Translations under genes and position numbers: made by a program | In this document: one piece after another, positions 16,539 to 33,432 of the stretch | Numbering within the stretch: position 1 is the stretch's first letter | Layout: each line of letters starts with the position of its first letter | Notes under the pieces: model-generated | Database searches by the model: none | Told to the model about the DNA's origin: nothing | What the model saw: the letters and a program-made list of their open reading frames with translations, nothing else | Source of the DNA: a virus | Direction: 5' to 3' (one strand) | Length of the DNA stretch: 33,941 bases | IMG/VR virus record: IMGVR_UViG_3300034418_003237 | Span: 1-33,941 of that record

Positions 16539-16724
16539 ACTTAATCCTTTCTAATTTCTGCGTATAGTTTAATATCTAATAATAATATTTTATATGATTT
16601 TAAAGAACTTTCCTCCTGTCCTTCTTAAAAATCTAATATCTAATATTTTTCTATTACTTTTGTTACAAAGAATTTTCCTTTCTATTTAGAGGAGTTAGTG
16701 TATAATCTATTAGAAATATTACTC

Positions 16725-16784
16725 TATTAGTAAATTCTGTTTATTTTTTTCAAAAAACTTTTATTTTTTACAGAGAACAATAGC
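16725..16784 (-). repeat. Inverted 60-bp control element, copy A
   Basis: Read on the minus strand it begins GCTATTGTTCT, has three A/T tracts (AAAAAATAAAAG, TTTTTTG, AAAAAAATAAACAG) and ends ACTAATA. By eye it matches 33172-33231 on the plus strand at 57 of 60 positions without gaps. The conserved 28-bp block follows after 64 bases in both copies. It points towards the SNF2 gene. Confidence 0.93.
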
Positions 16785-16818
16785 GATAACTTTAATAGCG
16801 TTCGGCAGTAAAAAGTAC

Positions 16819-16847
16819 TTTACTTTGCAAAGAAGGTTTACTAAAGT
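16819..16847 (+). promoter_or_regulatory. Early promoter copy 1 (TTTACT-17-TAAAGT)
   Basis: TTTACT at 16819-16824 is followed by a 17-base spacer and TAAAGT at 16842-16847, the same geometry as five other intergenic sites. It lies 26 bases before ATG 16874. The leader contains CCTTATAAAGG overlapping the ribosome site. It drives the primase-helicase operon. Confidence 0.7.
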
Positions 16848-16873
16848 AATAAACCCTTATAAAGGAGAAAGAT

Positions 16874-17224
16874 ATGACTGTCTATGTGGTACAGGAAGTT
16901 GAGGGCCGTAACGTTCTAACAGCTTCTAAATATGGGACATTAGAGGTTGTGCTTCCGAGCAAAACCAACCTAATGCTTACAACAGCCCCGGCGGTGAGAA
17001 CCGTCAAACGGGTGTTGTCTAATTTTAGCGACGAGGATTACTTGTTGTTAATGGGCGACCCCGCATCCATCGGCCTCTGCTGTGCAGTAGCCGCCGCAGT
17101 AAACTCAGGAAGGTTTAAAGTCCTTAAATGGGATCGCCAGTCGAGAGACTATTACGCGGTTTCTTTAGAGCTTTATTCTAAAACTGCATCTGAACCGGAA
17201 GACTTAGGAGAACTTAATGTCTGA
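16874..17224 (+). CDS. Conserved phage protein of unknown function (116 aa)
   Basis: This is the first gene of the first early operon, with a strong ribosome site (AAAGGAGAAAGAT) directly before the ATG. The N-terminus MTVYVVQEV and the later DYLLLMGDPASIGLC and FKVLKWDRQSRDYY form a pattern I recall from many uncharacterised marine phage proteins located at the head of replication operons. It has a small alpha/beta look without catalytic motifs or membrane segments. It overlaps the next start by 8 bases, so the two are translationally coupled. A role tied to DNA replication or early takeover is likely from context only. Confidence 0.65.
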   Translation: MTVYVVQEVEGRNVLTASKYGTLEVVLPSKTNLMLTTAPAVRTVKRVLSNFSDEDYLLLMGDPASIGLCCAVAAAVNSGRFKVLKWDRQSRDYYAVSLELYSKTASEPEDLGELNV

Positions 17225-17804
17225 AGATAAAGAACTCTCTTTTGAAGAGTTGACTGGATCTACCACTGTTTCTGAATGGCAAGAAACTTTAAACGATAAA
17301 GAAATATCTTCTATTTCGGATATCGCACAAGAGCAAGTTCAGCTACAAAACGAACTTGAAGCCTTAGAAGAACAGCTAAAAGAAAAGAAGAAAGAACTAA
17401 GACATGTGGCAGAGGTTAAATTACCAGAAGCTATGCAATCCGCTAACTTAATGGAATTTGTAACTGCGACAGGTTACAAAATATCTGTTAGTCCTTTCTT
17501 TCAAGCGTCTATTTCCGAAGCAAATAGAGAAGAAGCATTTTCTTGGTTAAAAAACAACGGTCATGGTGGTTTAATTAAAAACCAAGTAAACCTTAGCTTC
17601 GGTAGGGATGAGGATCAAAAAGCTAACGACACTGTAGAAAAGTTAAAGCAGCTTGGTCTAAGTCCAGAGGTAAAACAGGGAGTACATCCTTCAACGCTTA
17701 AAGCGTTTGTGAAGGAACAACTTACTGCAGGGAAGGATATACCTTCCGAAACATTCGGGATATATGTAGGTTCCCGCTCAAAAATAGAAAAGAAGAGGAA
17801 GTAA
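17217..17804 (+). CDS. Conserved replication-module protein with coiled coil and VHPxTLKAFV motif
   Basis: This 195-aa protein has an acidic N-terminus, then a coiled coil at ~40-70 (QLQNELEALEEQLKEKKKEL). A conserved C-terminal domain follows: EAFSWLKNNGHGGLIKNQV at ~102-120 and VHPSTLKAFVKEQL with IPSETFGIYVGSRSKI at ~157-186. I recognise the VHPxTL plus (D/E)xFG(I/V) pattern from phage proteins found beside ssDNA-binding, polymerase and helicase genes; no function is established to my knowledge. A helper of the adjacent ssDNA-binding-like protein is possible. It overlaps the upstream gene and ends 3 bases before the next ATG. Confidence 0.6.
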   Translation: MSEDKELSFEELTGSTTVSEWQETLNDKEISSISDIAQEQVQLQNELEALEEQLKEKKKELRHVAEVKLPEAMQSANLMEFVTATGYKISVSPFFQASISEANREEAFSWLKNNGHGGLIKNQVNLSFGRDEDQKANDTVEKLKQLGLSPEVKQGVHPSTLKAFVKEQLTAGKDIPSETFGIYVGSRSKIEKKRK

Positions 17805-17807
17805 ATC

Positions 17808-18581
17808 ATGTCAAAAGAAGTAGCGAAAGCGAACGTTGGTGAAGTTTTAGTTTTAGACGACGACTTATTGTCTAGCGGAACAGGTTTGGAGGATACTAGT
17901 TCCGAGGATTATGCGATTCCGTTTATCCGTGTGTTGCAATCTGGTTCCCCCCAGTTAAAGAAAAATAACGGTAAATATGTTGAGGGAGCTGCTCAAGGGA
18001 TGCTTTTTAATACCGTCACGAATGAGTTGTATGACGGTGATGAGGGTATTCTTGTTATTCCTTGTGCTTACACTAAAAAGTATATCGAATGGGTTCCGCG
18101 AGACGCAGGAGGCGGTATTGTAAACTCTGATCACACAGCTGATATCTTAAAAAGTGCGGTTCAAAACGAGAAGAAAAAGTACATTTTAAATAATGGTAAT
18201 GAAATACAAGAAACGGCTCAGTACTTTGCACTGATTGTTAATAATGAGCTAGAACCACAAGAAGTCTTATTAAGTTTCACCTCTAGCCAGCTAAGTTTTT
18301 CTCGACGTTGGAACTCTATGCTTCGAACTTCGAGAGTAAAAAACTCAGCAGGTGAAACTGTTCTAGCACCTATGTTCGCTAATATTTACCGTGTAAAAAC
18401 GGTAGAGCAATCTAACGACCTAGGGAGTTGGTATGGATTTACCGCAGAGAAAGAGAAAGCTACGCCTCTTGAGTTAGCTAGAATGGCGCGAGACTTTATG
18501 ACAGCTGCTCGTTCCGGTGCTGTAACAGTCAAACAAGAAGCTGCGGTGGACGAAGAGTCTGGAGAAGATATCCCGTTTTAA
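17808..18581 (+). CDS. Probable single-stranded DNA-binding protein (SSB-like tail)
   Basis: This 257-aa protein has a mixed beta core. Residues ~35-95 (DYAIPFIRVLQSGSPQLKK, then GMLFNTVTNEL and GILVIPCAY, then EWVPRD) match a family of phage proteins often placed in replication clusters. The C-terminus is acidic and ends in DIPF after DEESGE, which closely resembles the partner-binding tip of bacterial SSB proteins. That tail, and the position directly upstream of primase and helicase genes, suggest coating of ssDNA and recruitment of partners. I see no canonical OB-fold signature by eye, so the ssDNA-binding assignment is an inference. It starts 3 bases after the previous stop, and the following gene begins 14 bases later. 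Confidence 0.55.
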   Translation: MSKEVAKANVGEVLVLDDDLLSSGTGLEDTSSEDYAIPFIRVLQSGSPQLKKNNGKYVEGAAQGMLFNTVTNELYDGDEGILVIPCAYTKKYIEWVPRDAGGGIVNSDHTADILKSAVQNEKKKYILNNGNEIQETAQYFALIVNNELEPQEVLLSFTSSQLSFSRRWNSMLRTSRVKNSAGETVLAPMFANIYRVKTVEQSNDLGSWYGFTAEKEKATPLELARMARDFMTAARSGAVTVKQEAAVDEESGEDIPF

Positions 18582-18595
18582 TAGAAAGGTGAGAA

Positions 18596-20119
18596 ATGTC
18601 GCTAGAAGAACAATTTGCACAAAAGTTCGCTGGCCTACGACACGCATATAGTGTATTCACACCATCGAGTGAGACAAGAGAAGACGGGAAAGCTAAAGGA
18701 ACAAACGTCACAATATCTAAGACTCTTACGAAAGAACAGTTAAAAGATTTGTGGCGTCAACATCTTGACGGTAAACAGAGTATAGGTATTGTTGCTATTG
18801 ATGAAAACAATTCCTGTGTTTGGGGGGCCATCGATATTGATGAGTACCCCCTCGATCTCAAGGGTTTAGCTAAAAAGCTAAAAAAGTTTAAGTTGCCTTT
18901 AGTTGTCTGTCGATCTAAAAGTGGTGGAGCACATTTATTTTTGTTTGTCTTTGACCCAGTTCCTGCATATCTTATGCAGAAAAAGCTGCGTCAGGTAGCC
19001 GCGTCAATCGGATTCGGAACAGCTGAGATTTTTCCGAAACAAACTAAACTATTGTTAGAAAGAGGAGATCGTGGAAGCACGTTAAACATGCCATACTTCG
19101 GAGGTGAAGATTCAACAAGGTATGGGTTTAGTCCATCAGGGAGGACCTTTACCCCGGAGGAATTTTTAGAATATCTCGATACGATTACGTTAACTGAAGA
19201 AGAGTTAACACAACTGGATACGGCTCCAGCGGTTAAAAATATCGACTGGTTAGAACACGCCCCACCTTGTTTAGATCATTTGATCGCTCAGGGTTTTCCG
19301 AAAGGAATGAGAAACTCAGGTTTATTTAATCTAGGGGTTTTCTTACGCAAAAAGTATGCAGATGATTGGGAAAAACGTATCGAGCAAGTAAACCATGAGT
19401 ATATGCAGCCTCCGTTAGGAGCGCAGGAAGTACTTACGATTACAAAACAGGTGCAGCGAAAAGATTATTTTTATCGCTGTAACGACCAGCCAATCGCAAG
19501 CCATTGTAATAGTCCTCTTTGCAGAACTAGAAAGTTTGGTGTTGGAGCTTCAGGCGGTACTCCTTTGTTTAGTAACTTAACTAAACAGAATAGCGATCCA
19601 CCAATATGGTTTCTTGACGTAGAAGGTGGTCGCCTTGAGTTAGAGACCGAAGAACTTTTGAATCAAACTAAGTTTCAGCGTAAATGTATGGATATGCTAA
19701 ATACTATTCCCCCGAAAGTACGGGATAACGTATGGCGACAAGTTATCCAACAACTACTGGATAAGTTAACTGTTATAGAGGTGCCGAAAGATTCTTCGAC
19801 AGAAGGACATTTTAGTGAGCTGTTAGAAACGTTTTGTACTGAGCGGCCCGCTAGAGAAAAAGATGAGTTACTACTTGGCAAACCTTGGAGCGATAAGGGC
19901 AGGACATATTTTCGGTTAGCGGATCTTATGGATTTTTTACATCGTAAAAACTTTAGAGATTACCATCGAAGCAAACTAACTGCTCGATTACGAGATATGA
20001 AAGGAGAGGCTTACTTTTTTAATATAAAAGGCAAAGGTGTGAATGTTTGGCACATTCCTGAGTTTCAGGTGCAAAACGAAAGCCATGAGCTTCCTGAGTT
20101 TAACGAGAGTCCACTATGA
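18596..20119 (+). CDS. Archaeo-eukaryotic-type primase (AEP superfamily) with four-Cys module
   Basis: The N-terminal ~200 residues form an AEP catalytic domain. AIDIDEY (78-84) supplies the metal-binding Asp pair, SKSGGAHLFLF (107-117) is the SGGxH-type motif and TAEIFPKQ (142-149) is the third conserved element. This arrangement is like primases of TOTE-type systems and related phage primases. Residues ~220-315 form a second module with Cys225, Cys295, Cys304 and Cys309 (PPCLDHLI, YRCN, HCNSPLC) that could bind zinc or an iron-sulfur cluster. The last ~190 residues are uncharacterised and may be a winged-helix region. It makes RNA or DNA primers for replication. The ribosome site AAAGGTGAG precedes the start. 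The end overlaps the helicase gene by 4 bases. Confidence 0.85.
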   Translation: MSLEEQFAQKFAGLRHAYSVFTPSSETREDGKAKGTNVTISKTLTKEQLKDLWRQHLDGKQSIGIVAIDENNSCVWGAIDIDEYPLDLKGLAKKLKKFKLPLVVCRSKSGGAHLFLFVFDPVPAYLMQKKLRQVAASIGFGTAEIFPKQTKLLLERGDRGSTLNMPYFGGEDSTRYGFSPSGRTFTPEEFLEYLDTITLTEEELTQLDTAPAVKNIDWLEHAPPCLDHLIAQGFPKGMRNSGLFNLGVFLRKKYADDWEKRIEQVNHEYMQPPLGAQEVLTITKQVQRKDYFYRCNDQPIASHCNSPLCRTRKFGVGASGGTPLFSNLTKQNSDPPIWFLDVEGGRLELETEELLNQTKFQRKCMDMLNTIPPKVRDNVWRQVIQQLLDKLTVIEVPKDSSTEGHFSELLETFCTERPAREKDELLLGKPWSDKGRTYFRLADLMDFLHRKNFRDYHRSKLTARLRDMKGEAYFFNIKGKGVNVWHIPEFQVQNESHELPEFNESPL

Positions 20120-21612
20120 CCTTAACGGCTAGGGCACAAGTTATACTGGGACCTCCGGGCACAGGTAAAACTAGTACCCTTTTAGGGTTGCTCGAAGAAG
20201 AACTCGAGAAGGGTACTCAACCTGAACGCATAGGGTTTTTTACATTCACAAAACAAGCCGTAAAGGAAGGAAAAACTCGGGCATTAGAGCGATTTGAAAT
20301 TAGTCAAAAACAGCTGCCGTATTTTAGAACGCTGCATTCACTTTGTTTCTTACAGTTAGGATTATCGAAAGAATCGGTACTTGGAGCACAAGACTTTCGA
20401 GACTTAAACGACAAACTTAATTTAAGGTTAACTGGTTCGGTAAATACCGAAGACGGGAATATCTTGAGTGTATCTAAAGATGATCGTTTACTGTTTATAG
20501 AAAACCTTGCTCGCATGCGACAAGTTTCACTAGCACAGCAATGGCAGGAAGTCGACGATGTTGTAGGTTGGTTCGAGCTAGAGAGATTTTCTCGAGGATT
20601 AAATTTATTTAAACGTGACCGAGTGCTGCTCGATTACACAGACATGCTAGAGATGTTTTTAAAACGAGGACATGCTCCTAAGCTCGACGTAATGTTTGTT
20701 GACGAAGCTCAAGATTTATCTCCGTTACAGTGGGCGGTGGTTCGTAAACTTTGCGACCACGCTGATAAAATCTATATCGCTGGAGATGATGACCAAGCGA
20801 TTTATCGTTGGGCTGGGGCAGACGTTGAATATTTAATTAGTAATTCAAAAAATGCGATGGTTCTTAAACAATCGTATCGGATTCCTAAATCTATACACAA
20901 CCTTGCCGAGCGGTGTATCGGGCAAGTTGCCTCTCGAGTTCGAAAGAAATGGGAACCTCGAAAGGAAGCTGGTCAAGTTCGATGGGAAGCGTCTTATGAA
21001 TCTATCGACATGTCGGAAGGTGACTGGTTAGTTTTAGCTAGGACAAATTACCTTTTAGAAGGTGTCGAAAACTACTGTCGATCAGAAGGTTGGTTCTTTA
21101 AAAATAAAAATCGAGCCAGTATCTCTGAGAAAAAAGTTAAGTCTGTTAAAGATTGGGAAACGATAAGAAGCGGGGGACGTATTCTTGTCACGGAGCTTAT
21201 CAATCTCTTAGCTTACATGAATATTCGTGTACCCAACTCCCTGTCCAGTTTAGACTTTGACAGCTTTATCACGCTAAAAGATACGAAAAACCATATACCA
21301 AGTATTCCTGCGGAACATTGGTACGATGTTTTTAACGGAATGTCTGTTCGTGAGCGTAGCTACATTCAGGCAATGCTTCGACGCGGAGAAAAGATCACAA
21401 AAGAACCTCGTATTCGTTTATCGACGATCCATGCTGCTAAAGGTGGTGAAGCGACAAATGTAATTTTAATGACAGATCTTTCGACAAGAGTCTATAACTC
21501 TTACCAGAAAAATCCAGACGATGAATCGCGGGTATTTTATGTTGGGTTAACTCGCGCTAAAGAAAATTTGTATCTTATCGAGCCTCGCTCGACCAAGTAC
21601 TTCCCAATATAA
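20116..21612 (+). CDS. UvrD/Rep-like superfamily 1 DNA helicase
   Basis: This 498-aa protein has the SF1A motif set: Walker A GPPGTGKT (12-19), motif Ia FTFTKQA (~42-48), DEAQD (196-200), GDDDQAIYRW (223-232, motif III), QSYRIP near 255 (motif IV), STIHAAKGGEA near 438 (motif V) and YVGLTRAKENL near 477 (motif VI). It is shorter than UvrD (about 720 aa) because the accessory subdomains are reduced, as in many phage versions. It unwinds DNA 3' to 5' and probably serves as replicative or repair helicase together with the primase encoded just upstream, whose stop overlaps its start. It is the last gene of the first early operon and is followed by a new promoter. Confidence 0.93.
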   Translation: MTLTARAQVILGPPGTGKTSTLLGLLEEELEKGTQPERIGFFTFTKQAVKEGKTRALERFEISQKQLPYFRTLHSLCFLQLGLSKESVLGAQDFRDLNDKLNLRLTGSVNTEDGNILSVSKDDRLLFIENLARMRQVSLAQQWQEVDDVVGWFELERFSRGLNLFKRDRVLLDYTDMLEMFLKRGHAPKLDVMFVDEAQDLSPLQWAVVRKLCDHADKIYIAGDDDQAIYRWAGADVEYLISNSKNAMVLKQSYRIPKSIHNLAERCIGQVASRVRKKWEPRKEAGQVRWEASYESIDMSEGDWLVLARTNYLLEGVENYCRSEGWFFKNKNRASISEKKVKSVKDWETIRSGGRILVTELINLLAYMNIRVPNSLSSLDFDSFITLKDTKNHIPSIPAEHWYDVFNGMSVRERSYIQAMLRRGEKITKEPRIRLSTIHAAKGGEATNVILMTDLSTRVYNSYQKNPDDESRVFYVGLTRAKENLYLIEPRSTKYFPI

Positions 21613-21617
21613 ACTCC

Positions 21618-21647: not shown

Positions 21648-21675
21648 TTTTATTAGTTTAATAAAGGAGAAAGAG

Positions 21676-24968: not shown

Positions 24969-26817
24969 TCAGCTGCCCTTATTCACACCAGATAGCACAT
25001 GGAATGCCCCTGACGTATTACCTAAGTTCGATCCGACTGATACTTTAGCAATCGACCTAGAAACTTACGACCCTTCGTTACTGCAACGAGGTCCGGGATG
25101 GGCAACAGGCGATGGGCATATCGTAGGTATTGCAATCGCCTCTAATAAATGGTCAGGATATTTGCCCATCAGACATACTGGCGGCGGTAATTTAGACGAG
25201 GATGTTGTTCTTCGTTGGATGAAGCGTACTGTTGAAAACCATAAAGGCCCATTAATTTTTCATAACGCACTATATGACGCTGGTTGGCTAAAGCGTGAGG
25301 GTGTGGAAGTAAAAAGCCAAATATACGATACGATGTTCGCGGCTCCTCTGCTCGATGAAAACCGTCGTTCGTATTCGCTTAACAATTTAGGCAAAGATTA
25401 TTGTGATGAGGTTAAGGATGAATCCTTGTTGCAAGAAGCTGCTCAAGTCTGGGGGGTAAACGCTAAATCTGGTTTACATCAGCTTCCTGCTCGATACGTT
25501 GGTCCTTACGCGGAGCAAGATGCGGTTTTGACATTAAAACTCTGGGATAAGCTGTCTGGTCAAATAAAAGATCAAGGTTTACAAAAAGTATTTCAGATGG
25601 AGTGCGACCTTATCCCACTACTTTTAGAAATGCGCTGGCGAGGTGTTCGCATTGATACAAATCGAGCTGAAGAGGTTTGTGAAGAGTTGTCTAAACGTGA
25701 GCAACAAATGCTTGTACAGTTTAAACGTAAGTTTGGAACTACTGTAGAAATCTGGGCTAACGCCTCGATAGAAAAAGCATTTAAAGAGAACAATCTTTGG
25801 TTCCCTAAGACCGAAAAAGGTATGGCAAGTTTCCAAGCTCCTTGGCTTGAAGCTCATGAGCATGAACTCCCGCAGACGATTGTCAAGTTACGCAAGATTA
25901 ATAAAGCTCGGACTACATTCATTGAAAAGATGATCCTAGGGCATACTGTTAATGGTCGTATCCACGCGGAAGCCCACCCATTACGCAACGACGGAGGTGG
26001 TACAGTTAGCGGTCGGTTTAGTTATACCAATCCTAATCTACAACAGGTTCCTGCTAGAGACCCTGAACTCGGCAAGTTAATTCGATCCTTATTTATCCCG
26101 GAAGACGGAGCTAAATGGGGAGTTTTCGACTACTCGCAACAAGAGCCTAGGCTTACGGTACATTACGCCTCTCAGCTCGCTCTACGCGGCTCTAAGGACG
26201 CGGTAAAGGCTTACTCGGAGGACGGGGCAGATTTCCATCAGATCGTAGCGGATATGGCTGGTATACCTCGTAAGCAAGCGAAGAATATCAACCTCGGATT
26301 AACCTACGGGATGGGACAGACTAAGTTGATTAACGAGCTTGGACTAGAACCTGACGAGGCTAACATTCTACTAAACAAATACCACGACAGGGTTCCTTTC
26401 ATTAAAGCATTACAAGCTCAGTGCACTCGGATAGCTAACGAGAGAGGCTATATCACGACACTCGGAGGCAGACATTGTAGATTTGACTATTGGGAATCTA
26501 CTAATGGCAATAGCATCCCGTTACCTGAAGAAGAGGCTATAGAAAAATATGGAACCGTTAAACGTTCCTACACATACAAAGCCTTAAACCGACTAATTCA
26601 AGGTTCAGCCGCAGATATGACAAAGTTAGCGATGCTCGACCTTTGGAAAGAGGGCTATGTACCTCACATACAGATTCACGATGAGCTTGACTACTCTATC
26701 TCTAGCGAGGAGGAGTCGAAGATGGTTGTGGATAAAATGGTAAACTGTGTTGACTTAGCTGTTCCATTAGTCGTAGACGCAGAATTTGGTAATACATGGG
26801 GAGATGCTGAAGAATGA
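24961..26817 (+). CDS. polA: DNA polymerase A (3'-5' exonuclease and polymerase, no 5'-3' exonuclease)
   Basis: This 618-aa family A polymerase starts with a 3'-5' exonuclease domain: LAIDLETYDP with Asp32 and Glu34, HNALYDAGW near 101-109, and PYAEQDAVLTL near 180-190. The polymerase core has motif A VFDYSQQEPRL, motif B RKQAKNINLGLTYGMG (437-452) and motif C IHDELDYS near 580. The first (5'-3') exonuclease domain of E. coli Pol I is absent, as in other phage enzymes. The residue matching E. coli Phe762 is Leu445, a class reported as common in marine virioplankton. It replicates the phage genome. It lies in the modification operon, overlapping both neighbours by 4-8 bases. Confidence 0.96.
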   Translation: MSNQLPLFTPDSTWNAPDVLPKFDPTDTLAIDLETYDPSLLQRGPGWATGDGHIVGIAIASNKWSGYLPIRHTGGGNLDEDVVLRWMKRTVENHKGPLIFHNALYDAGWLKREGVEVKSQIYDTMFAAPLLDENRRSYSLNNLGKDYCDEVKDESLLQEAAQVWGVNAKSGLHQLPARYVGPYAEQDAVLTLKLWDKLSGQIKDQGLQKVFQMECDLIPLLLEMRWRGVRIDTNRAEEVCEELSKREQQMLVQFKRKFGTTVEIWANASIEKAFKENNLWFPKTEKGMASFQAPWLEAHEHELPQTIVKLRKINKARTTFIEKMILGHTVNGRIHAEAHPLRNDGGGTVSGRFSYTNPNLQQVPARDPELGKLIRSLFIPEDGAKWGVFDYSQQEPRLTVHYASQLALRGSKDAVKAYSEDGADFHQIVADMAGIPRKQAKNINLGLTYGMGQTKLINELGLEPDEANILLNKYHDRVPFIKALQAQCTRIANERGYITTLGGRHCRFDYWESTNGNSIPLPEEEAIEKYGTVKRSYTYKALNRLIQGSAADMTKLAMLDLWKEGYVPHIQIHDELDYSISSEEESKMVVDKMVNCVDLAVPLVVDAEFGNTWGDAEE

Positions 26818-27209
26818 CATCAGGAATAGAGGTTTTACGAAAACTAGAGCAACAGGAACTCTACTTAAAAATTTACAATGAGTATTTATCTTCAGATATC
26901 ACTCTACAAGATCTTGGTGAAAAGTACGGGATCACTCGCCAAAGGGTTTCACAGATTGTGATTCGATGCAAGGTAGGTGAGGGAGACTACTACTCGGGAG
27001 GACAAAAAGCGAAAGAACTTTGGGACACGATTGGCGAAGATCGCACAGAAAACGACTCTATGTCTCTAGCTATTCGCAAAGAGTTGTTCAGGTCGCACCT
27101 TGAGCAGAACTTCGACATCAAAATTGCTAAAAACAACCATAAGTTCACTCTACTCTTAGGAAGAAACTATGCCAAAAGAAAGCCTACTTTGGAAGCAACT
27201 GCGGGATAA
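26814..27209 (+). CDS. HTH protein resembling sigma-factor region 4
   Basis: This 131-aa protein carries a helix-turn-helix at ~residues 30-53, ITLQDLGEKYGITRQRVSQI, that is strikingly like region 4.2 of sigma70 factors (a TL-x-EIG-x-x-x-G-x-TRERIRQI pattern), the part that reads the -35 element. The rest is a charged helical region with no region 2. It could be a small transcription regulator, an anti-sigma-like or appropriator-type factor, or a diverged sigma fragment. Its operon neighbours are polymerase (4-base overlap upstream) and VRR-NUC (41-base overlap downstream). It is the only obvious DNA-binding regulator in the window and is therefore a candidate to act on the repeated promoters described here. 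That link is inference. Confidence 0.7.
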   Translation: MTSGIEVLRKLEQQELYLKIYNEYLSSDITLQDLGEKYGITRQRVSQIVIRCKVGEGDYYSGGQKAKELWDTIGEDRTENDSMSLAIRKELFRSHLEQNFDIKIAKNNHKFTLLLGRNYAKRKPTLEATAG

Positions 27210-27652: not shown

Positions 27653-28678
27653 ATGGTTGCAGCAGTAGAAAGTATGGCGTGGACCGGAGAGGTTCCTTGG
27701 CATCGCGAAGGTGTTAAAGTGGACCCCAACCTCACTCCACAAGAGATGATGATTGCAGCACAACTTGATTGGACGGTTAGTAAACGTCCCGGTTACACGA
27801 TAACCACCCCCGAGTATGGCGAAGACGGTATGGAGCTTATGCAAACGCCTAGTAGCTTCTTTATTGTGCGCGATACGGACAACTCAATATTGTCCCATTG
27901 CGGCCCTAAATACTTACCCGTACAAAATGAGAAGATCTTCCAGTTCTTTTCTGACTTCACTACCGCAGCACAGATGACAATGGAAACTGCTGGTAGTTTA
28001 CGCGGCGGTAAAAGTATCTGGGCACTTGCGAAACTAGCCGATACGTTTGAACTTCCCGGAGAAGATCAGATTGGCGGCTATTTATTGTTACATCAGCCTC
28101 ATGAAGCGGGGCATGCGTTAACCGCCCGCTACACGCAAATAAGAGTTGTTTGTAACAACACCCTTCAACTAGCCTTTTCTAACGGCAAAGCACAGTTCAG
28201 TATGTCGCACATTAGAGAGTTTAATGCAGACATGGCGCAACAAGCTGCTGAGACCCTCGGATTAGCTAACGATACCAGCAAGCTGTTTAAAGAGTCTGCC
28301 GAGTTCCTCGCTAAGAAGAAAGCGCAACATTCGAACGTGCTTGAGTTTATTGGCCGTATCTACCAACCAGACGTTATCGCCCAGCGTGTTAAAAACGATG
28401 AGCTTAGGGCCGAGGGCCGCAAGGTTGGTGAAGAAGGGCCTTTAATCGACGAATTTAACCGCACGACGCGCAACGTTGTCGAAGCCTTAGAACGTGCTCC
28501 CGGAGCCTTGCTAAAATCTTCAGCAGGAACTTGGTGGGGTGCGCTAAACGCAGTAACCTATGTTGAAGATCATATGCGCGGTGGCGAGAATAAGGTGTAC
28601 AACTCGTTAATCGGCGATGGTTCTAAGCGTAAGGAAAAGGCTTATCGAATGGCGCTTGAATATGCGGAGGCTGCGTAA
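27653..28678 (+). CDS. DUF932 / phage-plasmid-like protein (TIGR03299 type)
   Basis: This 341-aa protein has the DUF932 layout. An N-terminal VPWHREGVKVDPNLTPQEMM (~19-38) and a YLPVQNEKIFQFF stretch (~92-104) lead to GGKSIWALAKL (~123-133), then RYTQIRVVCNNTLQLAF (~158-174). The C-terminal part includes GTWWGALNAVTYVEDHM (~294-310) and the ending AYRMALEYAEAA. The family is frequent in phages and plasmids and its biochemical role is not settled. It is the first gene of a short operon behind its own promoter, suggesting early, strong expression. It has no visible membrane segment. Confidence 0.9.
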   Translation: MVAAVESMAWTGEVPWHREGVKVDPNLTPQEMMIAAQLDWTVSKRPGYTITTPEYGEDGMELMQTPSSFFIVRDTDNSILSHCGPKYLPVQNEKIFQFFSDFTTAAQMTMETAGSLRGGKSIWALAKLADTFELPGEDQIGGYLLLHQPHEAGHALTARYTQIRVVCNNTLQLAFSNGKAQFSMSHIREFNADMAQQAAETLGLANDTSKLFKESAEFLAKKKAQHSNVLEFIGRIYQPDVIAQRVKNDELRAEGRKVGEEGPLIDEFNRTTRNVVEALERAPGALLKSSAGTWWGALNAVTYVEDHMRGGENKVYNSLIGDGSKRKEKAYRMALEYAEAA

Positions 28679-28680
28679 CC

Positions 28681-28950
28681 ATGGGTGAAGTGAGAAGATT
28701 ACATAATTGTCTTGTAATTGATGGAGATTTTGCCAGTGAACTTTGGGCTACCCTTCGTGATAAGGAGGGTAGTTTAAGCTCAGAGCGTTTATCAGAAATG
28801 ATTGCGCTTAAAATGTACGATCAAGACTGTGGCTTTTCTAGCACAGTTCTTGATAGTATCGGAGGCTCAGAAACTAGTGATGAAATTATTTCTCAGTGGG
28901 CCGCGCCAATTAGAAAACGGCTGAAGGAGGCAGAACAATCTAATGGGTAG
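28681..28950 (+). CDS. Hypothetical acidic protein (89 aa)
   Basis: The ATG follows the DUF932 stop by 2 bases. It has no ribosome site of its own beyond GGAGG 14-18 bases upstream, so coupling is likely. The protein is mixed acidic with LVIDGDFASELWATLRD and ISQWAAPIRKRLKEAEQ, has no recognisable family and no membrane segment. It ends 17 bases before the next early promoter's -35. Confidence 0.6.
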   Translation: MGEVRRLHNCLVIDGDFASELWATLRDKEGSLSSERLSEMIALKMYDQDCGFSSTVLDSIGGSETSDEIISQWAAPIRKRLKEAEQSNG

Positions 28951-28967
28951 CTATGAGAAGTTAATGC

Positions 28968-28996
28968 TTTACTTTCCGTTTAGTGTGTAGTAAAGT
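28968..28996 (+). promoter_or_regulatory. Early promoter copy 4 (TTTACT-17-TAAAGT)
   Basis: TTTACT 28968-28973, 17-base spacer, TAAAGT 28991-28996. The two boxes are inverted relative to each other (CTTTACT and AGTAAAG). The leader holds GTTTTT...AAAAAC, then TAAGGAGAAAG before ATG 29057. Confidence 0.75.
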
Positions 28997-29056
28997 AGTT
29001 TTTGTTGGTTAGTAAAAACAACTTAGAAAGTAGAACCTCAGTAAGGAGAAAGTACT

Positions 29057-29458
29057 ATGGCGATAGCCAAAAAGAAAGTAGTTACGGCTGCTACGAAAAA
29101 GCCGACCGCTCGAAAGACTGTAGCAAAAGCTAACCCAGCTCCTGTTGCAAAACTTTCGATACCCGCCCCTGTCAAGAAAAGCAGTAGCCGAGCGCAACGC
29201 TTTGAGTACACGGGTAAACTGGCCAGTGAGACTAAGCAAAAAACTCCACAGTTTGTTGCTATGATCACAGCCATGCAGGATATAGAAGACACGAGTTTTG
29301 ATTCTAAAAACTTTGAGCTTCTTGAGTTAGTACGACTGGCAGTAAAAGAGGGCCACCTCGCAATGCCAAATACTAAGAATCCTGAAAAACAGATGCGCCG
29401 CATCGTGGCGTATTACAAAGGCCGCTTGGTAGAAGAGGGATATATCAAGCTAATTTAA
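29057..29458 (+). CDS. Basic protein with Lys/Ala-rich tail, possible DNA-binding (133 aa)
   Basis: Residues 1-45 are a disordered Lys/Ala/Pro tail (KKKVVTAATKKPTARK and similar) like the tails of H1-type histone-like proteins. Residues ~50-133 form a helical domain ending GRLVEEGYIKLI, which could be a winged helix. This suggests nucleic-acid binding, but no family is recognised. It is a single-gene unit between its own promoter and a Rho-independent terminator. Confidence 0.6.
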   Translation: MAIAKKKVVTAATKKPTARKTVAKANPAPVAKLSIPAPVKKSSSRAQRFEYTGKLASETKQKTPQFVAMITAMQDIEDTSFDSKNFELLELVRLAVKEGHLAMPNTKNPEKQMRRIVAYYKGRLVEEGYIKLI

Positions 29459-29464
29459 ATCGAC

Positions 29465-29487
29465 GGGGGCGCAAGCCCCCTTTGTTT
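29465..29487 (+). terminator. Rho-independent terminator/attenuator with GCAA tetraloop
   Basis: A perfect 6-bp stem GGGGGC-GCAA-GCCCCC is followed by TTTGTTT. It lies 6 bases after the preceding stop. The next gene's ribosome site begins 2 bases after the U-rich tract, so the gene at 29499 probably depends on read-through. Confidence 0.85.
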
Positions 29488-29498
29488 CGGAGAAAGAA

Positions 29499-29831
29499 AT
29501 GAATTTAGAAATTGTTAAGCAAGAGCCGTGGATTGGCAGGAATTACAAAGGTAGCTCAAAATATCAACCAATTCTCGACGCTATTAGAGCGTTAGACGTA
29601 GGTGATTCAGTTTTTATAAATCTTGATGAATTTAGAGAATTATCTGGTCGTGTGAAAAATCCGTCTTTTGAGAAAAAAGAAATGGAAAGTAAATACACGG
29701 AACGAGTTAGAGTTTTAATGAAAACCGTAGGCAAAAAACTTGAAAGGTCTTTTGTACTGCGAAGAGAACGCGGTATGGAGCCGTGGAACGAACCTCCCGG
29801 TGTTTGGATTTTCCGTATTAGTCAAAAATAA
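29499..29831 (+). CDS. Hypothetical protein (110 aa)
   Basis: The gene has the ribosome site GGAGAAAG immediately downstream of a terminator and no promoter of the TTTACT type. The protein is basic with KGSSKYQPILDAIRAL, FINLDEFRELSGRVK and a final GVWIFRIS. It is a plausible small winged-helix or nucleic-acid-binding protein, but no family is recognised. It is likely expressed at lower level by read-through. Confidence 0.6.
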   Translation: MNLEIVKQEPWIGRNYKGSSKYQPILDAIRALDVGDSVFINLDEFRELSGRVKNPSFEKKEMESKYTERVRVLMKTVGKKLERSFVLRRERGMEPWNEPPGVWIFRISQK

Positions 29832-29852
29832 TGGTAGCTGTCCCAGTACTGC

Positions 29853-29881
29853 TTTACTTTCGCGGTACTGGGGCGTAACCT
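29853..29881 (+). promoter_or_regulatory. Early promoter copy 5 (TTTACT-17-TAACCT variant)
   Basis: TTTACT at 29853-29858 is well conserved, but the hexamer at the usual spacing is TAACCT (29876-29881); a TATATA just downstream at 29881-29886 could replace it. The -35 sits in the loop of a perfect inverted repeat CCCAGTAC (29842-29849) and GTACTGGG (29865-29872). AAAGGAGAAAGAT precedes ATG 29917. Confidence 0.6.
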
Positions 29882-29916
29882 ATATATAGTACGCGCTAAC
29901 GAGAAAGGAGAAAGAT

Positions 29917-30207
29917 ATGATCGTACACGGTTCGATACGCCACGACTATAGCGGCAAGAAACGTAAGAAATTACCACGCACAACTAAGCGTGTTCCGAAG
30001 TTCGAAGAGCTTACCAGCTTACCTAAGCCAACAGCTTACCGACCGAACGACTACCCCTCAGTCGCCTCTACTCCAGCGAGTACTGCCCCCAAGCCTGACC
30101 AGTCTTACCGACAGGAAATTAGTTCTCAATACACTGTGTCGATACCCTACAATAAGGGGGCATACCAAGTGATATCTCGAGAAAACTTAGAGGAAATAGG
30201 TAAATGA
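29917..30207 (+). CDS. Conserved hypothetical basic protein (96 aa)
   Basis: The first gene after promoter copy 5. The N-terminus MIVHGSIRHDYSGKKRKK is basic, the middle is Pro/Ser/Thr-rich and probably disordered, and the C-terminus (GAYQVISRENLEEIGK) looks structured. A similar head and tail occur in small unknown proteins of marine phages, from memory. Its TGA overlaps the next ATG (ATGA). Confidence 0.6.
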   Translation: MIVHGSIRHDYSGKKRKKLPRTTKRVPKFEELTSLPKPTAYRPNDYPSVASTPASTAPKPDQSYRQEISSQYTVSIPYNKGAYQVISRENLEEIGK

Positions 30208-30392
30208 TATTCAAACTAGAGGTTTCTGTTGAAGATGGAGACGAAAAAGATTTTTACGGTATTTGGGAATACGAAGCAGAAAACCCCAGTCGCCGCACCA
30301 AATTAAAGTGGTTAAACGAAATCGCGGATGAGTTAATCAACCGCATCATGGTAGAAGAGATGCACGAGTTGGACGAAGGAGGAGACAGATGA
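30204..30392 (+). CDS. Hypothetical acidic protein (62 aa)
   Basis: Coupled on both sides by 4-base ATGA overlaps. It is highly acidic: a short beta N-terminus (MIFKLEVSVED) precedes a helical C-terminus with many Glu. No family is recognised. A GGAGGAGA sequence near its end provides the ribosome site of the following gene. Confidence 0.55.
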   Translation: MIFKLEVSVEDGDEKDFYGIWEYEAENPSRRTKLKWLNEIADELINRIMVEEMHELDEGGDR

Positions 30393-30673
30393 ACGACGAA
30401 GAAATGACGTTTGAGATTGAAGAGCGTAATTACGAATATTGCGATAGTTGTCAACAGCTCGGAGAGACTGGCCCTTCCGGAATGAAAACTCATCGTAGTA
30501 TTCCCCTCGATACAGTTTGGGTAAAAACGACCGTAGATGATGAACGATTCTTTTTAACGCTGTGCGGGGATTGTTTAGCCGTTGCTCAAAATCAAGGGGT
30601 TACTGTGATAAAGAATGGCGAGCCATGGGTGCGAGACGATATGTCTATTATGAGAAAGGAGCTGCGAGCATGA
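30389..30673 (+). CDS. Hypothetical protein with two CxxC pairs (94 aa)
   Basis: The protein has Cys-x-x-Cys at YCDSCQQLGE (~residues 17-26) and LCGDCLAVA (~59-67), a likely zinc ribbon. It is otherwise acidic, with a beta-rich central part, and ends in RKELRA. It overlaps its neighbours by 4 bases on each side. A 21-bp sequence including its last codons and the next start is repeated 116 bases later. It may bind nucleic acid or a protein partner; no family is recognised. Confidence 0.6.
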   Translation: MNDEEMTFEIEERNYEYCDSCQQLGETGPSGMKTHRSIPLDTVWVKTTVDDERFFLTLCGDCLAVAQNQGVTVIKNGEPWVRDDMSIMRKELRA

Positions 30674-30674
30674 A
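30654..30674 (+). repeat. 21-bp duplicated stop/start junction, copy 1
   Basis: Bases 30654-30674 equal 30770-30790 exactly. The unit holds the ribosome site AAAGGAG, codons for KELRA and the overlapping ATGA junction. Confidence 0.95.
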
Positions 30675-30789
30675 CACTCCAAAGTATATTAAAGCTTGGA
30701 ATGCTTGGTGGACCACTACCGATCGCCGAAAAGTAAAGCGACTCGAGCGGATTATGAAAGAACAGAGCCGAAAGGAGCTGCGAGCATGA
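30670..30789 (+). CDS. Small hypothetical basic protein (39 aa)
   Basis: ATG at 30670 overlaps the previous TGA. Its TGA overlaps the next ATG at 30786. The ribosome site AAAGGAG lies ~10 bases upstream. The product contains YIKAWNAWWTTTDRRKVK and ends SRKELRA, the same tail as the preceding protein. It is rich in Trp, Lys and Arg with no known family. The coupled overlaps support that it is translated. Confidence 0.6.
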   Translation: MNTPKYIKAWNAWWTTTDRRKVKRLERIMKEQSRKELRA

Positions 30790-30790
30790 A
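30770..30790 (+). repeat. 21-bp duplicated stop/start junction, copy 2
   Basis: An exact copy of 30654-30674 providing the ribosome site and start of the 175-aa gene at 30786. Probably arose by duplication of the junction. Confidence 0.95.
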
Positions 30791-31313
30791 TATCTTTTAT
30801 ATAAGTGACTGCCCCGAATACGCGGCCCAATGGCAATGTGATAAGCACGTTGTGAAAATGTGCCTAGAAACCGCTCAGATGCTCTGTACGGCATATCGGC
30901 GGTGGGAAGACCCTTTGCCCGAGGAGCTTTCGACTAAGCTTTATAAGAACGCCCACGTACACCACCCTATGACAATCTGGGTAGGCGACTCTACTCAACA
31001 ATATGCGTGGACCTACCACCATTTCATGGCTCTACTCAACGAGTACACTTACCGCTATGGAAAAGTCCACGCCAGCGCCCGATTACTTAAGCCACTAGAT
31101 AAAATCCCCGAGATGATGCCTAATATAAAAATCACCCCGCCACCACAATGTATGCCCGATGCATTTAAAGGCTCGGATTGTGTTGAAGCGTACCGACGAT
31201 ACTACATACATAAAGCTGAGACTGCGTTTGAAATGCGGTGGACCGAGCGTGATGTCCCGGAGTGGTTCGACTCTAAATTAATAGATTTTTACTTCGAGGA
31301 GAAGGATACATGA
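30786..31313 (+). CDS. Conserved phage protein with CDKHVVKM motif (175 aa)
   Basis: I choose ATG 30786, where the conserved family start MNIFYISD begins. An upstream in-frame ATG at 30696 lies within another gene. The family signature is clear: QCDKHVVKMCLETAQML (~17-33), HHPMTIWVGDSTQQYAW (~59-75), LLNEYTYRYGKVHAS (~82-96) and AYRRYYIHKA (~141-150). Such proteins occur widely in tailed phages and some bacteria and are uncharacterised. The paired His residues (DKHV, HHP, KVHAS) suggest a metal-binding or enzymatic centre. It overlaps the next gene by 4 bases. Confidence 0.7.
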   Translation: MNIFYISDCPEYAAQWQCDKHVVKMCLETAQMLCTAYRRWEDPLPEELSTKLYKNAHVHHPMTIWVGDSTQQYAWTYHHFMALLNEYTYRYGKVHASARLLKPLDKIPEMMPNIKITPPPQCMPDAFKGSDCVEAYRRYYIHKAETAFEMRWTERDVPEWFDSKLIDFYFEEKDT

Positions 31314-31453
31314 CTAAAAACGAGCTGTTCGAGATTCTTTGGAAAGCAATAAAAGACACTGACGTGGACTTTCAATATATGGATGGATTCGATGACTTTT
31401 GTATAGAAAGTGAACTGTGCATCTGTTTCAAGAATGTTCAGGAGGACGAATAA
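31310..31453 (+). CDS. Small hypothetical protein (47 aa)
   Basis: An ATGA overlap links it to the gene upstream. The product is acidic with four Cys and Phe-rich spacing (DDFCIESELCICFKN). No family is recognised. Its TAA overlaps an ATG at 31453. Confidence 0.5.
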   Translation: MTKNELFEILWKAIKDTDVDFQYMDGFDDFCIESELCICFKNVQEDE

Positions 31454-31515
31454 TGTCCGACTTACAAAAAGTCTACGATCTTCGTAGGCTCCCCCCTAGT
31501 GCTTTACTTTCGTAA
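31453..31515 (+). CDS. Tiny open frame ending inside promoter 6 (20 aa)
   Basis: ATG 31453 overlaps the previous stop and has a strong AGGAGG ribosome site. The frame ends in TTACTTTCGTAA, so its last codons are the -35 region of the next promoter (encoding SALLS). Translation is plausible but function is doubtful. Confidence 0.25.
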   Translation: MSDLQKVYDLRRLPPSALLS

Positions 31516-31531
31516 AAGTGGGGGCTATAGT
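31503..31531 (+). promoter_or_regulatory. Early promoter copy 6 (TTTACT-17-TATAGT)
   Basis: TTTACT 31503-31508 and TATAGT 31526-31531 with 17 bases between. The -35 is bracketed by CCCCC and GGGGG arms plus CTTTAC/GTAAA. A leader hairpin and AGAAAGAGAGAAAGAACT precede ATG 31588. Confidence 0.78.
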
Positions 31532-31587
31532 ATAAAAGGTAGCGGTAACGCGCCGCCGAAAAACTAACTAGAAAGAGAGAAAGAACT

Positions 31588-31818
31588 ATGGAACTAACGC
31601 TATTAGTCGAGTGTAACCCAGACGACCGTACCGAGGTGCGTGACGTGGTTGTCGAATTTAACTACTACCCCGCAGACCCTGAATGCGGGACGAGGGACGA
31701 GTACGATATTATCAATTTCGAAGCGTACACCGATTTCGAGTACGACAATATCATACAACAGCTTCACGAAATGAACGCTGGCCCGAATGCTTTAGAGGAA
31801 CTACAATATGACCTCTAA
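31588..31818 (+). CDS. Hypothetical acidic protein (76 aa)
   Basis: The first gene after promoter copy 6. It is very acidic, with a beta-rich start (MELTLLVECNPDD) and aromatic segments (FNYYPADPECG, FEAYTDFEYDN). No family is recognised. Its acid-rich, small make-up resembles early phage proteins that bind host enzymes, but nothing specific supports that. It overlaps the following gene by 11 bases. Confidence 0.55.
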   Translation: MELTLLVECNPDDRTEVRDVVVEFNYYPADPECGTRDEYDIINFEAYTDFEYDNIIQQLHEMNAGPNALEELQYDL

Positions 31819-31978
31819 CCCTGAGATCAGAGCGATTAAAGCCTTGCTTGATGAACTCGAGCAAGAATTTAACCCCGAGGAATTATCCTCACCCGATGCG
31901 ACAGTAAAGTTATTAGAGGTTCAGATAGCTTTGTACGACTTGCGCAAACTTATGATAATAAAGGAGAAAGTAGAATGA
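31808..31978 (+). CDS. Hypothetical helical protein (56 aa)
   Basis: ATG 31808 lies within the end of the previous gene, and its TGA overlaps the next ATG (ATGA). It is an acidic, all-helical protein with KALLDELEQEFNPEEL and a basic end. An 18-base stretch (31937-31954), encoding DLRKLM, recurs at 33075-33092 in the last early gene. No family is recognised. Confidence 0.5.
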   Translation: MTSNPEIRAIKALLDELEQEFNPEELSSPDATVKLLEVQIALYDLRKLMIIKEKVE

Positions 31979-32496
31979 ACGATTGGAAATTTAAGACAAA
32001 AGTGTTTCGACGATATTTAGGCGACGATGTTGAAGAAACAAAGTATGCCATTCCCGAAGATCTGACAGATAAAGTGATCTCACTTATGGAACAAGCGCAT
32101 GGCTACTTGATGACGCATAACAGCGAGTCTACGGAAAAGTTTCTCGAAGAATGGCCCGAGATTGCCTCATTAGCTCGGACGTACTCGCAGCTTAACCCGA
32201 AGCTAAAAACTTCAAAAGGATATGCGAACTTGATCCCCCGAGTTTTACAGATGAAGCACGACCAACGCGTCGAAAATATAGTAACGTGGATCGTGGACAA
32301 TCGGCTCGACGAAACCGATACGTGGCGCAAGGATGAACAAGACTATCTAAAAACTATTCCTGAAGTTGCCGCACTTCTACGGCAGCGGGAAGAGGACAAA
32401 GAGGTTGAAGACGAAGCCAAAGCGTTTTATGATACTTACCTCGTCGACACAACTATCGACGATCCCGATGACGAAAATATTTCATGGAGGGTATAG
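31975..32496 (+). CDS. Hypothetical acidic helical protein (173 aa)
   Basis: The ribosome site AAAGGAGAAAG is ~5 bases before ATG 31975. The protein is helical and acidic throughout, with MEQAHGYLMTHNSES, NPKLKTSKGYANLIPRVLQM and a Glu/Asp-rich end (DDPDDENISWRV). Trp and Tyr are frequent. No family or active-site motif is recognised. It is the last gene of its operon and is followed by a possible RNA hairpin and a terminator. Confidence 0.6.
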   Translation: MNDWKFKTKVFRRYLGDDVEETKYAIPEDLTDKVISLMEQAHGYLMTHNSESTEKFLEEWPEIASLARTYSQLNPKLKTSKGYANLIPRVLQMKHDQRVENIVTWIVDNRLDETDTWRKDEQDYLKTIPEVAALLRQREEDKEVEDEAKAFYDTYLVDTTIDDPDDENISWRV

Positions 32497-32505
32497 TTCT
32501 GTTGA

Positions 32506-32562
32506 CCGAGACGCAGCGATTAGATAACGTCCCTCCTTGACCTTTGCGTTGTCTAAACTCGG
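32506..32562 (+). other. Possible structured RNA or long stem-loop
   Basis: CCGAG (32506-32510) can pair with CTCGG (32558-32562), and TAGATAACG (32521-32529) with CGTTGTCTA (32547-32555) with one G-U pair. The loop is ~17 bases. It follows the stop of the upstream gene and precedes a terminator, so it is transcribed if the operon is. It could be a 3' UTR structure or a small RNA. Confidence 0.4.
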
Positions 32563-32575
32563 AACCCCGCCCTCG

Positions 32576-32611
32576 GCCCCTGTCCCTTAACAGTGGGTCG
32601 GGGGCTTTTTT
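32576..32611 (+). terminator. Rho-independent terminator
   Basis: GCCCC...CCC pairs imperfectly with GGG...GGGGC across a small loop and is followed by six T. It ends the operon that started at promoter copy 6. Confidence 0.75.
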
Positions 32612-32624
32612 ATGGGCGTAGTGC

Positions 32625-32653
32625 TTTACTTTCCCTTTAGTCGCCGCTATAGT
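32625..32653 (+). promoter_or_regulatory. Early promoter copy 7 (TTTACT-17-TATAGT)
   Basis: TTTACT 32625-32630, 17 bases, TATAGT 32648-32653. The leader contains a perfect GGCGGC-CCGC-GCCGCC hairpin, then ACTAGAAAGAGAGAAAGAT before ATG 32712. It starts the last early gene. Confidence 0.78.
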
Positions 32654-32711
32654 TAAAAAGGTGGCGGCCCGCGCCGCCGATTTTAAACATTAACTAGAAA
32701 GAGAGAAAGAT

Positions 32712-33104
32712 ATGAATAGAAGAGTACAAGTAACCGAACTACTTAACCACTACACCAATAACATTAACTGGGATTTGTCAGACCCAGACTGCTGGGGAGT
32801 GGTTGAATTACCGGAAGACCACATATACGAGATAAATGGATTCGAATTCCCGTATGTCGAAGAATTTTGCGACACCCTTAAATTAAGCGAAAACGTCGAC
32901 GAAATACAGTTCACCCAATTTGATATGAACGGGGGAATAACGTGTTCGACCTTATTGTTTAGAGCCACCCTCCCGGACGAACCGCCACGATTTTATAAGT
33001 TCGACCTTTATGAAGGAGGGTCAGTGACTAACTACGAAGTCCGACGATGGGTCGACGAGAGCTTTAGCGACGATGACTTGCGCAAACTTATGCTAGTAAA
33101 GTAG
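32712..33104 (+). CDS. Hypothetical acidic protein (130 aa)
   Basis: A single-gene unit between promoter copy 7 and a strong terminator. The protein is acidic and aromatic (ELPEDHIYEINGFEFPY, FKFDLYEGGS-like segments) with a helical end (ESFSDDDLRKLML). The DNA for DLRKLM repeats 18 bases of the 56-aa gene upstream. No family is recognised. Its isolation with a dedicated promoter and leader hairpin suggests strong expression of one product. Confidence 0.6.
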   Translation: MNRRVQVTELLNHYTNNINWDLSDPDCWGVVELPEDHIYEINGFEFPYVEEFCDTLKLSENVDEIQFTQFDMNGGITCSTLLFRATLPDEPPRFYKFDLYEGGSVTNYEVRRWVDESFSDDDLRKLMLVK

Positions 33105-33122
33105 GACCGAGGATCGTTGACA

Positions 33123-33145
33123 GGGGCCGAAAGGCCCCTTTTTTT
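33123..33145 (+). terminator. Rho-independent terminator with GAAA tetraloop
   Basis: A perfect GGGGCC-GAAA-GGCCCC stem with seven T follows the last early gene. It should insulate the downstream control region from early transcription. Confidence 0.92.
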
Positions 33146-33432
33146 GCCCCTAATTAGACTATTAGATTATTGCTATTGTTCTGTGGAAAAAATAAAAGTT
33201 TTTTGAAAAAAATAAACAGAATTCACTAATAAACTAATAGAAGTAATAGAATCAAGCTGAAAGTCTCTAGGACAGTGGATCTTGTGAAAAAGAACAAAGT
33301 AATAGAAATGTATTAGATATTAGTTTCATAAGTAAGAATCAGAAAGATTTTAGAGAAGGACACGAGGAAACTTTTAGACTTTCATAAAATATATTATATT
33401 TAAAACATAACTATCCACACTGGAATTACCGA
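33146..33432 (+). promoter_or_regulatory. Long AT-rich control region upstream of the terminase gene
   Basis: No gene is seen. The region repeats, in inverted orientation, the region upstream of the SNF2 gene: the 60-bp block (33172-33231), then after 64 bases a 28-bp block (33296-33323, 26/28 matches) and a 16-bp block (33355-33370, 15/16). A possible promoter in the first block is TTGAAA (33203-33208), 18 bases, TAATAA (33227-33232). No good ribosome site precedes ATG 33433. Confidence 0.8.
33172..33231 (+). repeat. Inverted 60-bp control element, copy B
   Basis: Matches copy A (16725-16784, minus strand) at 57 of 60 bases with no gap. It contains alternating A and T tracts suggestive of bent DNA. 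It points towards the terminase gene, just after the early terminator. Confidence 0.93.

What the first reader, a model, noticed from the sequence alone, without database searches (positions are those of the whole stretch)
16539..33432. A complex control region occurs twice in inverted orientation and brackets the whole early region
The minus strand of 16725-16784 matches 33172-33231 at 57/60 positions. A second block (16633-16660 versus 33296-33323) matches 26/28 and lies exactly 64 bases downstream in both copies. A third (16609-16624 versus 33355-33370) matches 15/16. Each copy reads outwards, into the SNF2 helicase gene on the left and into the terminase gene on the right, with AT-rich leaders of ~190-200 bases. 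The bases between the blocks have diverged, so the blocks are probably under selection. Possible roles: paired late promoters, a replication origin with bent DNA, or recombination sites that could invert the 16-kb early region.
Basis: seen in the sequence. Interest (0 to 1): 0.8.

Follow-up and report, generated by a model that had tools for sequence, protein, structure and literature searches.

The report
Paired late-promoter control regions in phages
Two near-copies of a roughly 200-base control region flank the early genes of this marine phage and point outward, most likely as switches that turn on the packaging and virion genes and one helicase late in infection; the same pair is found across a large group of uncultured phages.

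Summary
In detail: all three block matches check out exactly (57/60, 26/28, 15/16; best 60-base match in 500 randomised pairs was 38). The window is a 33.9-kb fragment of an uncultured marine phage. The element lies upstream of the small terminase gene (T copy) and of the SNF2 helicase gene (H copy) in the related contigs examined. Both copies are present, inverted, in 18 of 18 genomes that include both sites. An exact TAATA-3/4-TAATA-3/4-TAATA triple occurs only at these sites. Architecture: A/T tract, three direct TAATA boxes, inverted TATTAG boxes, a GGNCAYGAG block, then a -10-like hexamer 49-52 bp downstream of that block and about 30-40 bp before the ATG. In one clade the TATTAG boxes repeat every 20.2 +/- 0.9 bp (two helical turns). 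No RNA structure is conserved. Early genes use a different promoter (CTTTACTTT-N15-TAWAGT). Best reading: paired activator-dependent late promoters, working like the phi29 p4/A3 switch but not shown to be homologous. The early region is never seen inverted. The 57/60 identity of block 1 is lineage-specific, probably gene conversion. Promoter activity and the activator's identity are inferred.

The parts
16538..16797 (-). H copy of the composite control region (reads into the SNF2 helicase gene)
   Evidence: Inverted partner of 33160-33432; model R1 match 16601-16783, E 1.2e-23; present upstream of helicase homologues in many contigs
16738..16770 (-). A/T-tract part of H copy
   Evidence: Sequence; composition conserved, letters not, across genomes
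16708..16729 (-). Three direct TAATA boxes, spacing 8 and 9
   Evidence: exact triple found only at element sites
16633..16656 (-). Block 2: TAATAG then two inverted TATTAG boxes
16609..16625 (-). Block C (AGAAGGACAGGAGGAAA)
16566..16571 (-). -10-like hexamer TAAACT, 51 bp after the AGG of block C (weak; an alternative is TATACG at 16561-16566)
   Evidence: position predicted from the family spacing 49-52
15096..16538 (-). SNF2-type helicase gene, first gene downstream of H copy
   Evidence: PF00176 85.9 bits, phrog_62 E 1.4e-115
16818..16847 (+). Divergent early promoter CTTTACTTT-N15-TAAAGT next to H copy
33123..33145 (+). Terminator-like hairpin GGGGCC/GGCCCC plus T run closing the early operon before T copy
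   Evidence: Seen in sequence
33160..33432 (+). T copy of the composite control region (reads into terminase small subunit)
   Evidence: Model R1 match 33173-33381, E 5.8e-31
33187..33218 (+). A/T-tract part of T copy
33227..33248 (+). Three direct TAATA boxes, spacing 8 and 9
33249..33294 (+). Middle segment partly conserved among T copies of both clades, not shared with H copies
33300..33323 (+). Block 2: TAATAG then two inverted TATTAG boxes
33354..33370 (+). Block C (AGAAGGACACGAGGAAA)
33406..33411 (+). -10-like hexamer CATAAC, 49 bp after the AGG of block C
   Evidence: homologous position is TATAAC/TATACT/TATAGT in relatives
33433..33941 (+). Terminase small subunit gene (cut by contig end)
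   Evidence: PF03592 57.7 bits, phrog_51 E 6e-21
26814..27209 (+). Small HTH protein, candidate activator (inferred, weak)
   Evidence: Sigma70_r4 23.2 bits (cut-off 24.1) and Mor 17.7 bits; present in all 19 family sequences, absent from 4 relatives without the element
29057..29458 (+). Early protein with Lys/Ala/Pro-rich tail, candidate accessory DNA-binding protein (speculative)
   Evidence: Alignment; found in 18 of 19 family sequences and in none of the 4 relatives without the element; no significant fold match

Best explanation
The two inverted copies are a pair of late-promoter control regions. Early in infection host RNA polymerase uses strong early promoters (CTTTACTTT-N15-TAWAGT) inside the bracketed region. 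An early phage protein then binds the repeated TAATAG/TATTAG boxes on an A/T-tract scaffold. Together with a factor at the GGNCAYGAG block, it recruits host RNA polymerase to a promoter that has a -10-like hexamer but no visible -35. From the T copy transcription runs into the terminase and virion operon. From the H copy it runs the other way into the SNF2 helicase gene. Shown here: the architecture, its conservation, its two positions and polarity, the fixed spacing to the -10-like hexamer, the two-helical-turn spacing of boxes in one clade, and the separate early promoter class. Inferred: that it is a promoter, that it is late, that a phage activator binds it, and which protein that is.
For: A model built from the element finds strong copies at two places, in opposite orientation, in 19 records; nearly all remaining hits overlap these sites on the other strand or are near threshold. 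Both copies lie upstream of TerS and SNF2 in all 18 genomes that contain both sites. The exact TAATA triple occurs 32 times in 19 genomes, always at element sites, against 0.0 per shuffled genome. It is exact in 55 of 61 sequence clusters (305 upstream regions) and never worse than 2 mismatches. Block C to an exact TATAVT is 49-52 bp in 23/25 H clusters of the AT-rich clade and 9/13 T clusters of the window's clade, while block C to ATG varies from 80 to 93 in the former: the block follows the hexamer, not the start codon. TATTAG boxes repeat at 20.16 +/- 0.87 bp (38 spacings), with 1, 2 or 3 boxes and the last usually 8 bp before block C. One-turn (11-bp) insertions occur between T-copy blocks. 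RNAalifold predicts 0 pairs; Rfam none. Six early promoters all lie on the plus strand in the early region, expected 0.51. HTVC027P, a distant relative, has no RNA polymerase gene, uses host polymerase and shows early/middle/late clusters (PMC12753301).
Against: No transcription data exist for this clade. In the window itself both -10-like hexamers are imperfect (CATAAC, TAAACT). Three H clusters have an off-phase triple-to-block-C spacing (107) and two others 92 and 95. Some W-clade H copies have lost a recognisable block C. The four named relatives lack the element, so the transcriptome of HTVC027P cannot be transferred directly. The activator candidate rests on one clade-level presence/absence contrast that several other genes share.
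Confidence: 0.72

Rival explanations
1. A pair of replication origins: TAATAG iterons plus AT-rich DNA, bound by a phage initiator.
For: A/T tracts and direct plus inverted short repeats; location at the two transcription divides of the genome.
Against: Fixed polarity toward the gene, block C locked to a -10-like hexamer; two copies each tied to a gene start in the contigs examined; GC skew shows no sign change near 33.2 kb and only follows gene direction at 15-17 kb (limited by the fragment).
Confidence: 0.1
2. RNA-level control: a long 5' leader carrying an antitermination or RNA-protein binding site.
For: The element sits just upstream of genes, and the boxes could be read in RNA.
Against: No conserved pairing, no Rfam match, boxes used in both orientations with two-helical-turn spacing, and a -10-like hexamer downstream of all blocks.
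Confidence: 0.08
3. Recombination sites that invert the 16-kb early region.
For: Long inverted repeats; the W-specific 93% identity of the 56-bp A/T segment suggests at least one exchange (gene conversion) between copies.
Against: Early-region orientation is the same in all 19 genomes and in the 151 of 160 helicase loci where it could be read; none of 160 terminase loci show the flipped neighbour. The copies share little contiguous identity in other genomes. No recombinase was identified among the proteins scanned.
Confidence: 0.03
4. The T copy contains the packaging start site (pac/cos) as well, which would explain its T-specific middle segment and its place next to terS.
For: Middle segment partly conserved in T copies of both clades and not shared with H copies.
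Against: Does not explain the H copy; no terminus data.
Confidence: 0.04

Closest known systems
Bacillus phage phi29 early/late switch (proteins p4 and p6, promoters A2b, A2c, A3; PMC3100819)
   Same: Late promoter with a poor -35 used by host RNA polymerase, several upstream activator sites built on A-tracts, divergent early promoter in the same control region (here on the left side).
   Different: p4 sites are CTTTTT-15-AAAATG inverted repeats; here TAATAG/TATTAG boxes and a GGNCAYGAG block. Two copies per genome serve two outward units. No p4 or p6 homologue identified.
Phage Mu late promoters and the Mor/C activators (PMC4461284)
   Same: Phage-coded activator and host polymerase at late promoters; the window's small HTH protein has a sub-threshold Mor match (17.7 bits, cut-off 24.9).
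   Different: From general knowledge, Mor/C act from a compact site next to -35; here the region is about 180-200 bp with many boxes.
Pelagibacter phages HTVC023P and HTVC027P
   Same: Similar overall gene order: helicase convergent with late genes, replication genes next to it, then terminase.
   Different: No match to the element. HTVC023P has an array of five CTAGGAAA boxes and AGAGGACGTCATTTG upstream of terS, perhaps an analogous region with other boxes; no room for an H copy.

Membership tests
phi29 p4-dependent late control region | Weak -35, sigma-70-type -10 at the late promoter | tested here: inconclusive
   -10-like TATAVT at fixed spacing in relatives, no -35 seen; imperfect in the window; no start site mapped
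phi29 p4-dependent late control region | p4 sites CTTTTT-15-AAAATG | tested here: not met
   Not part of the conserved pattern; A/T tracts vary in letters
phi29 p4-dependent late control region | p4 and p6 homologues | not tested
   No dedicated search; no protein scanned was named so
Mu Mor/C-type activation | Mor-family activator encoded | tested here: not met
   Pfam Mor 17.7 bits, below cut-off 24.9
Activator-dependent phage late promoter (general kind) | Lies upstream of late genes and points into them | tested here: met
   Upstream of TerS in 18/18 genomes
Activator-dependent phage late promoter (general kind) | Transcript starts there only late | not testable with these tools
   Needs RNA from infected cells
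Iteron replication origin | Replication starts at the site | not testable with these tools
   Needs infected-cell DNA
Invertible segment | Both orientations of the bracketed segment occur | tested here: not met
   Single orientation in all loci examined

The most novel reading that the evidence does not exclude
The element is a replication-coupled late switch: its T-rich boxes are recognised only after the phage's 5-hydroxymethyl-dU DNA kinase pathway has hypermodified thymines in newly made DNA. A dedicated HTH protein and a protein with a basic tail wrap the region into a compact nucleoprotein that turns on both late units at once.
Probability: 0.07. Interest if true: 0.85.

Novelty: new variant of a known kind. 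Interest (0 to 1): 0.52.

Why it matters
It gives a simple sequence signature (TAATA triple plus GGNCAYGAG) that finds the early/late boundary in uncultured genomes, and it names two small early proteins to test as the switch. It also offers a natural series of box-number and spacing variants for studying how distant activator sites work with host polymerase.

Tried and rejected
RNA structure: RNAalifold on 20 copies gave no pairs, and Rfam gave none. Block 1 as a sigma-70 promoter of its own (TTGAAA-N18-TAATAG is readable in the window) was dropped because the TTGAAA is not kept in relatives. Helical phasing was first judged from raw triple-to-block-C distances (58, 79, 89, 99, 110, 122, 125); with five off-phase clusters this alone was weak, so I rely on the box spacing instead. 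Named phages by megablast: none. Host by search of genome contigs: one MAG contig with 63% helicase identity and no element, uninformative. Foldseek of the two candidate proteins gave no significant match. The text of a published pelagiphage transcriptome does not state the timing of the helicase or terminase genes.

Full report
What the window is. It is a 33,941-base virus record from IMG/VR. It starts inside the late region (endolysin-like fragment, virion, ejection and tail proteins) and ends inside the terminase small subunit gene. Reading left to right: virion genes on the plus strand to 15099; an SNF2-type helicase on the minus strand (15096-16538); a plus-strand early region with a Pam3 gp32/33/34-like trio, AEP-type primase, UvrD-like helicase, methyltransferase, 5-hmdU DNA kinase helical-domain protein, thymidylate synthase, DNA polymerase A and many small genes; then terminase (33433 on).

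The observation. All three matches are exact as stated, and far beyond chance.

Relatives. No named phage matches at the DNA level. The nearest named relatives by helicase are 023Pt_psg01 (57%), DSL-LC04 (53%), HTVC027P (51%) and HTVC023P (45%). IMG/VR holds many closer contigs: 80 terminase and 80 helicase loci were fetched with window queries and 80 + 80 more with queries from an AT-richer clade. Upstream of both genes the same composite element appears.

Genome-wide count. A sequence model of the element searched in whole records finds the two places strongly, in opposite orientations, in 19 records. Of 19 sequences read in full, 18 contain both upstream regions and all 18 have both copies. 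The exact box triple TAATA-3/4-TAATA-3/4-TAATA occurs only at these sites: 32 hits, no others, 0.0 per shuffled genome. Across 305 upstream regions in 61 clusters the triple is exact in 55 and has at most 2 mismatches in the rest. None of the four named relatives has it.

Anatomy. From upstream to the gene: an A/T tract of about 30 bp whose composition but not letters is kept; the three direct TAATA boxes, spaced 8 and 9; a middle segment; TAATAG followed by inverted TATTAG boxes; a GGNCAYGAG-like block C; AT-rich DNA; a -10-like hexamer; the gene. Block C and the hexamer keep 49-52 bp between them even where the distance to the start codon shifts from 80 to 93. In H copies of the AT-rich clade, TATTAG boxes recur every 20.16 +/- 0.87 bp (n = 38), with one to three boxes, the last usually 8 bp before block C. 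In T copies the spacing between the triple and block 2 takes two values about 11 bp apart, and the window itself has an 11-bp longer spacing between block 2 and block C than its near relative L012. These are the steps expected if proteins bind on one face of the DNA. Not all spacings obey: five H clusters are off-phase. No RNA pairing is conserved.

Two promoter classes. The early region carries six CTTTACTTT-N15-TAWAGT sites, all on the plus strand (16818, 27569, 28967, 29852, 31502, 32624), expected 0.51. In the relatives such sites likewise lie on the early-gene strand. The leftmost one stands back to back with the H copy. A terminator-like hairpin ends the early operon just before the T copy.

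Block 1. Its 57/60 identity is special to this lineage. Over the 56 bp before the triple, own T versus own H is 93% in the window but 60-75% in 17 other genomes, close to the between-genome mean of 66%. The window's T segment is 98% like that of L012, while its H segment is 59% like that of its nearest H relative by helicase, L089. The simplest reading is that the T-type segment was copied into the H site (gene conversion); the direction is an inference. So this identity should not be read as the footprint of selection; the boxes, block 2 and block C are what is kept.

Inversion. The start of the early operon lies antisense next to the helicase in 78/80 and 73/80 loci and next to the terminase in none of 160. 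No flipped genome was seen.

Mechanism. I conclude that these are paired, activator-dependent late promoters. Steps shown: conservation, number, place, polarity, spacing. Steps inferred: transcription start, timing, protein. The gene set unique to element carriers in this comparison includes a small HTH protein (26814-27209; sub-threshold sigma-70 region 4 and Mor matches; helical model with pLDDT 75, no significant fold match) and a protein with a Lys/Ala/Pro-rich tail (29057-29458). The same set also contains the methyltransferase, kinase, thymidylate synthase and 24543-24968 genes, so the assignment is weak.

Comparison. It works like the phi29 switch, where p4 on A-tract sites, with p6, activates late promoter A3 (poor -35) and represses early promoters (PMC3100819). 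It is not shown to be a member: the p4 site pattern is not met and no p4/p6 homologue was identified. HTVC023P may hold an analogous single region with five CTAGGAAA boxes upstream of terS.

Verdict. Real, conserved and in all likelihood functional; a new variant of a known kind (activator-dependent phage late promoter). The inversion idea is disfavoured and the origin idea is unsupported.

Noticed in passing
window 16818-32653: A family of six early promoters CTTTACTTT-N15-TAWAGT, all on the plus strand; related sites occur on the early-gene strand in many relatives.
   Followed up: partly
window 21676-24968: Methyltransferase, 5-hmdU DNA kinase helical-domain protein (PF18723), thymidylate synthase and a conserved small protein form a block kept in all 19 family sequences: likely thymine hypermodification.
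   Followed up: no
window 33249-33294: T copies of both clades share a partly conserved middle segment (around CTCTNGG) that H copies lack; possible extra regulator or packaging site.
   Followed up: partly
L170 11680-11771 (HTVC023P): Five CTAGGAAA boxes cluster upstream of terS, with one other plus-strand and one minus-strand copy elsewhere in the genome; may be the counterpart of the element with different boxes.
   Followed up: partly
window 29057-29458: Early protein with Lys/Ala/Pro-rich N-terminal tail and a folded C-terminal part, conserved in the family; reminiscent of linker-histone-like tails, no significant fold match.
   Followed up: partly
window 13685-14106: Glycine/proline-rich repeat tract (GGPGG-type) in the 1290-aa virion protein.
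   Followed up: no
L001 9780-9880: Just after terS the contig runs into CTCTACTCTA-type repeats and ends; several contigs of the family, the window included, end in or near terS.
   Followed up: no
L168 15254-15781 (HTVC027P) and L172 14383-14916 (023Pt_psg01): In HTVC027P and 023Pt_psg01 terS lies on the minus strand, opposite to this family.
   Followed up: no
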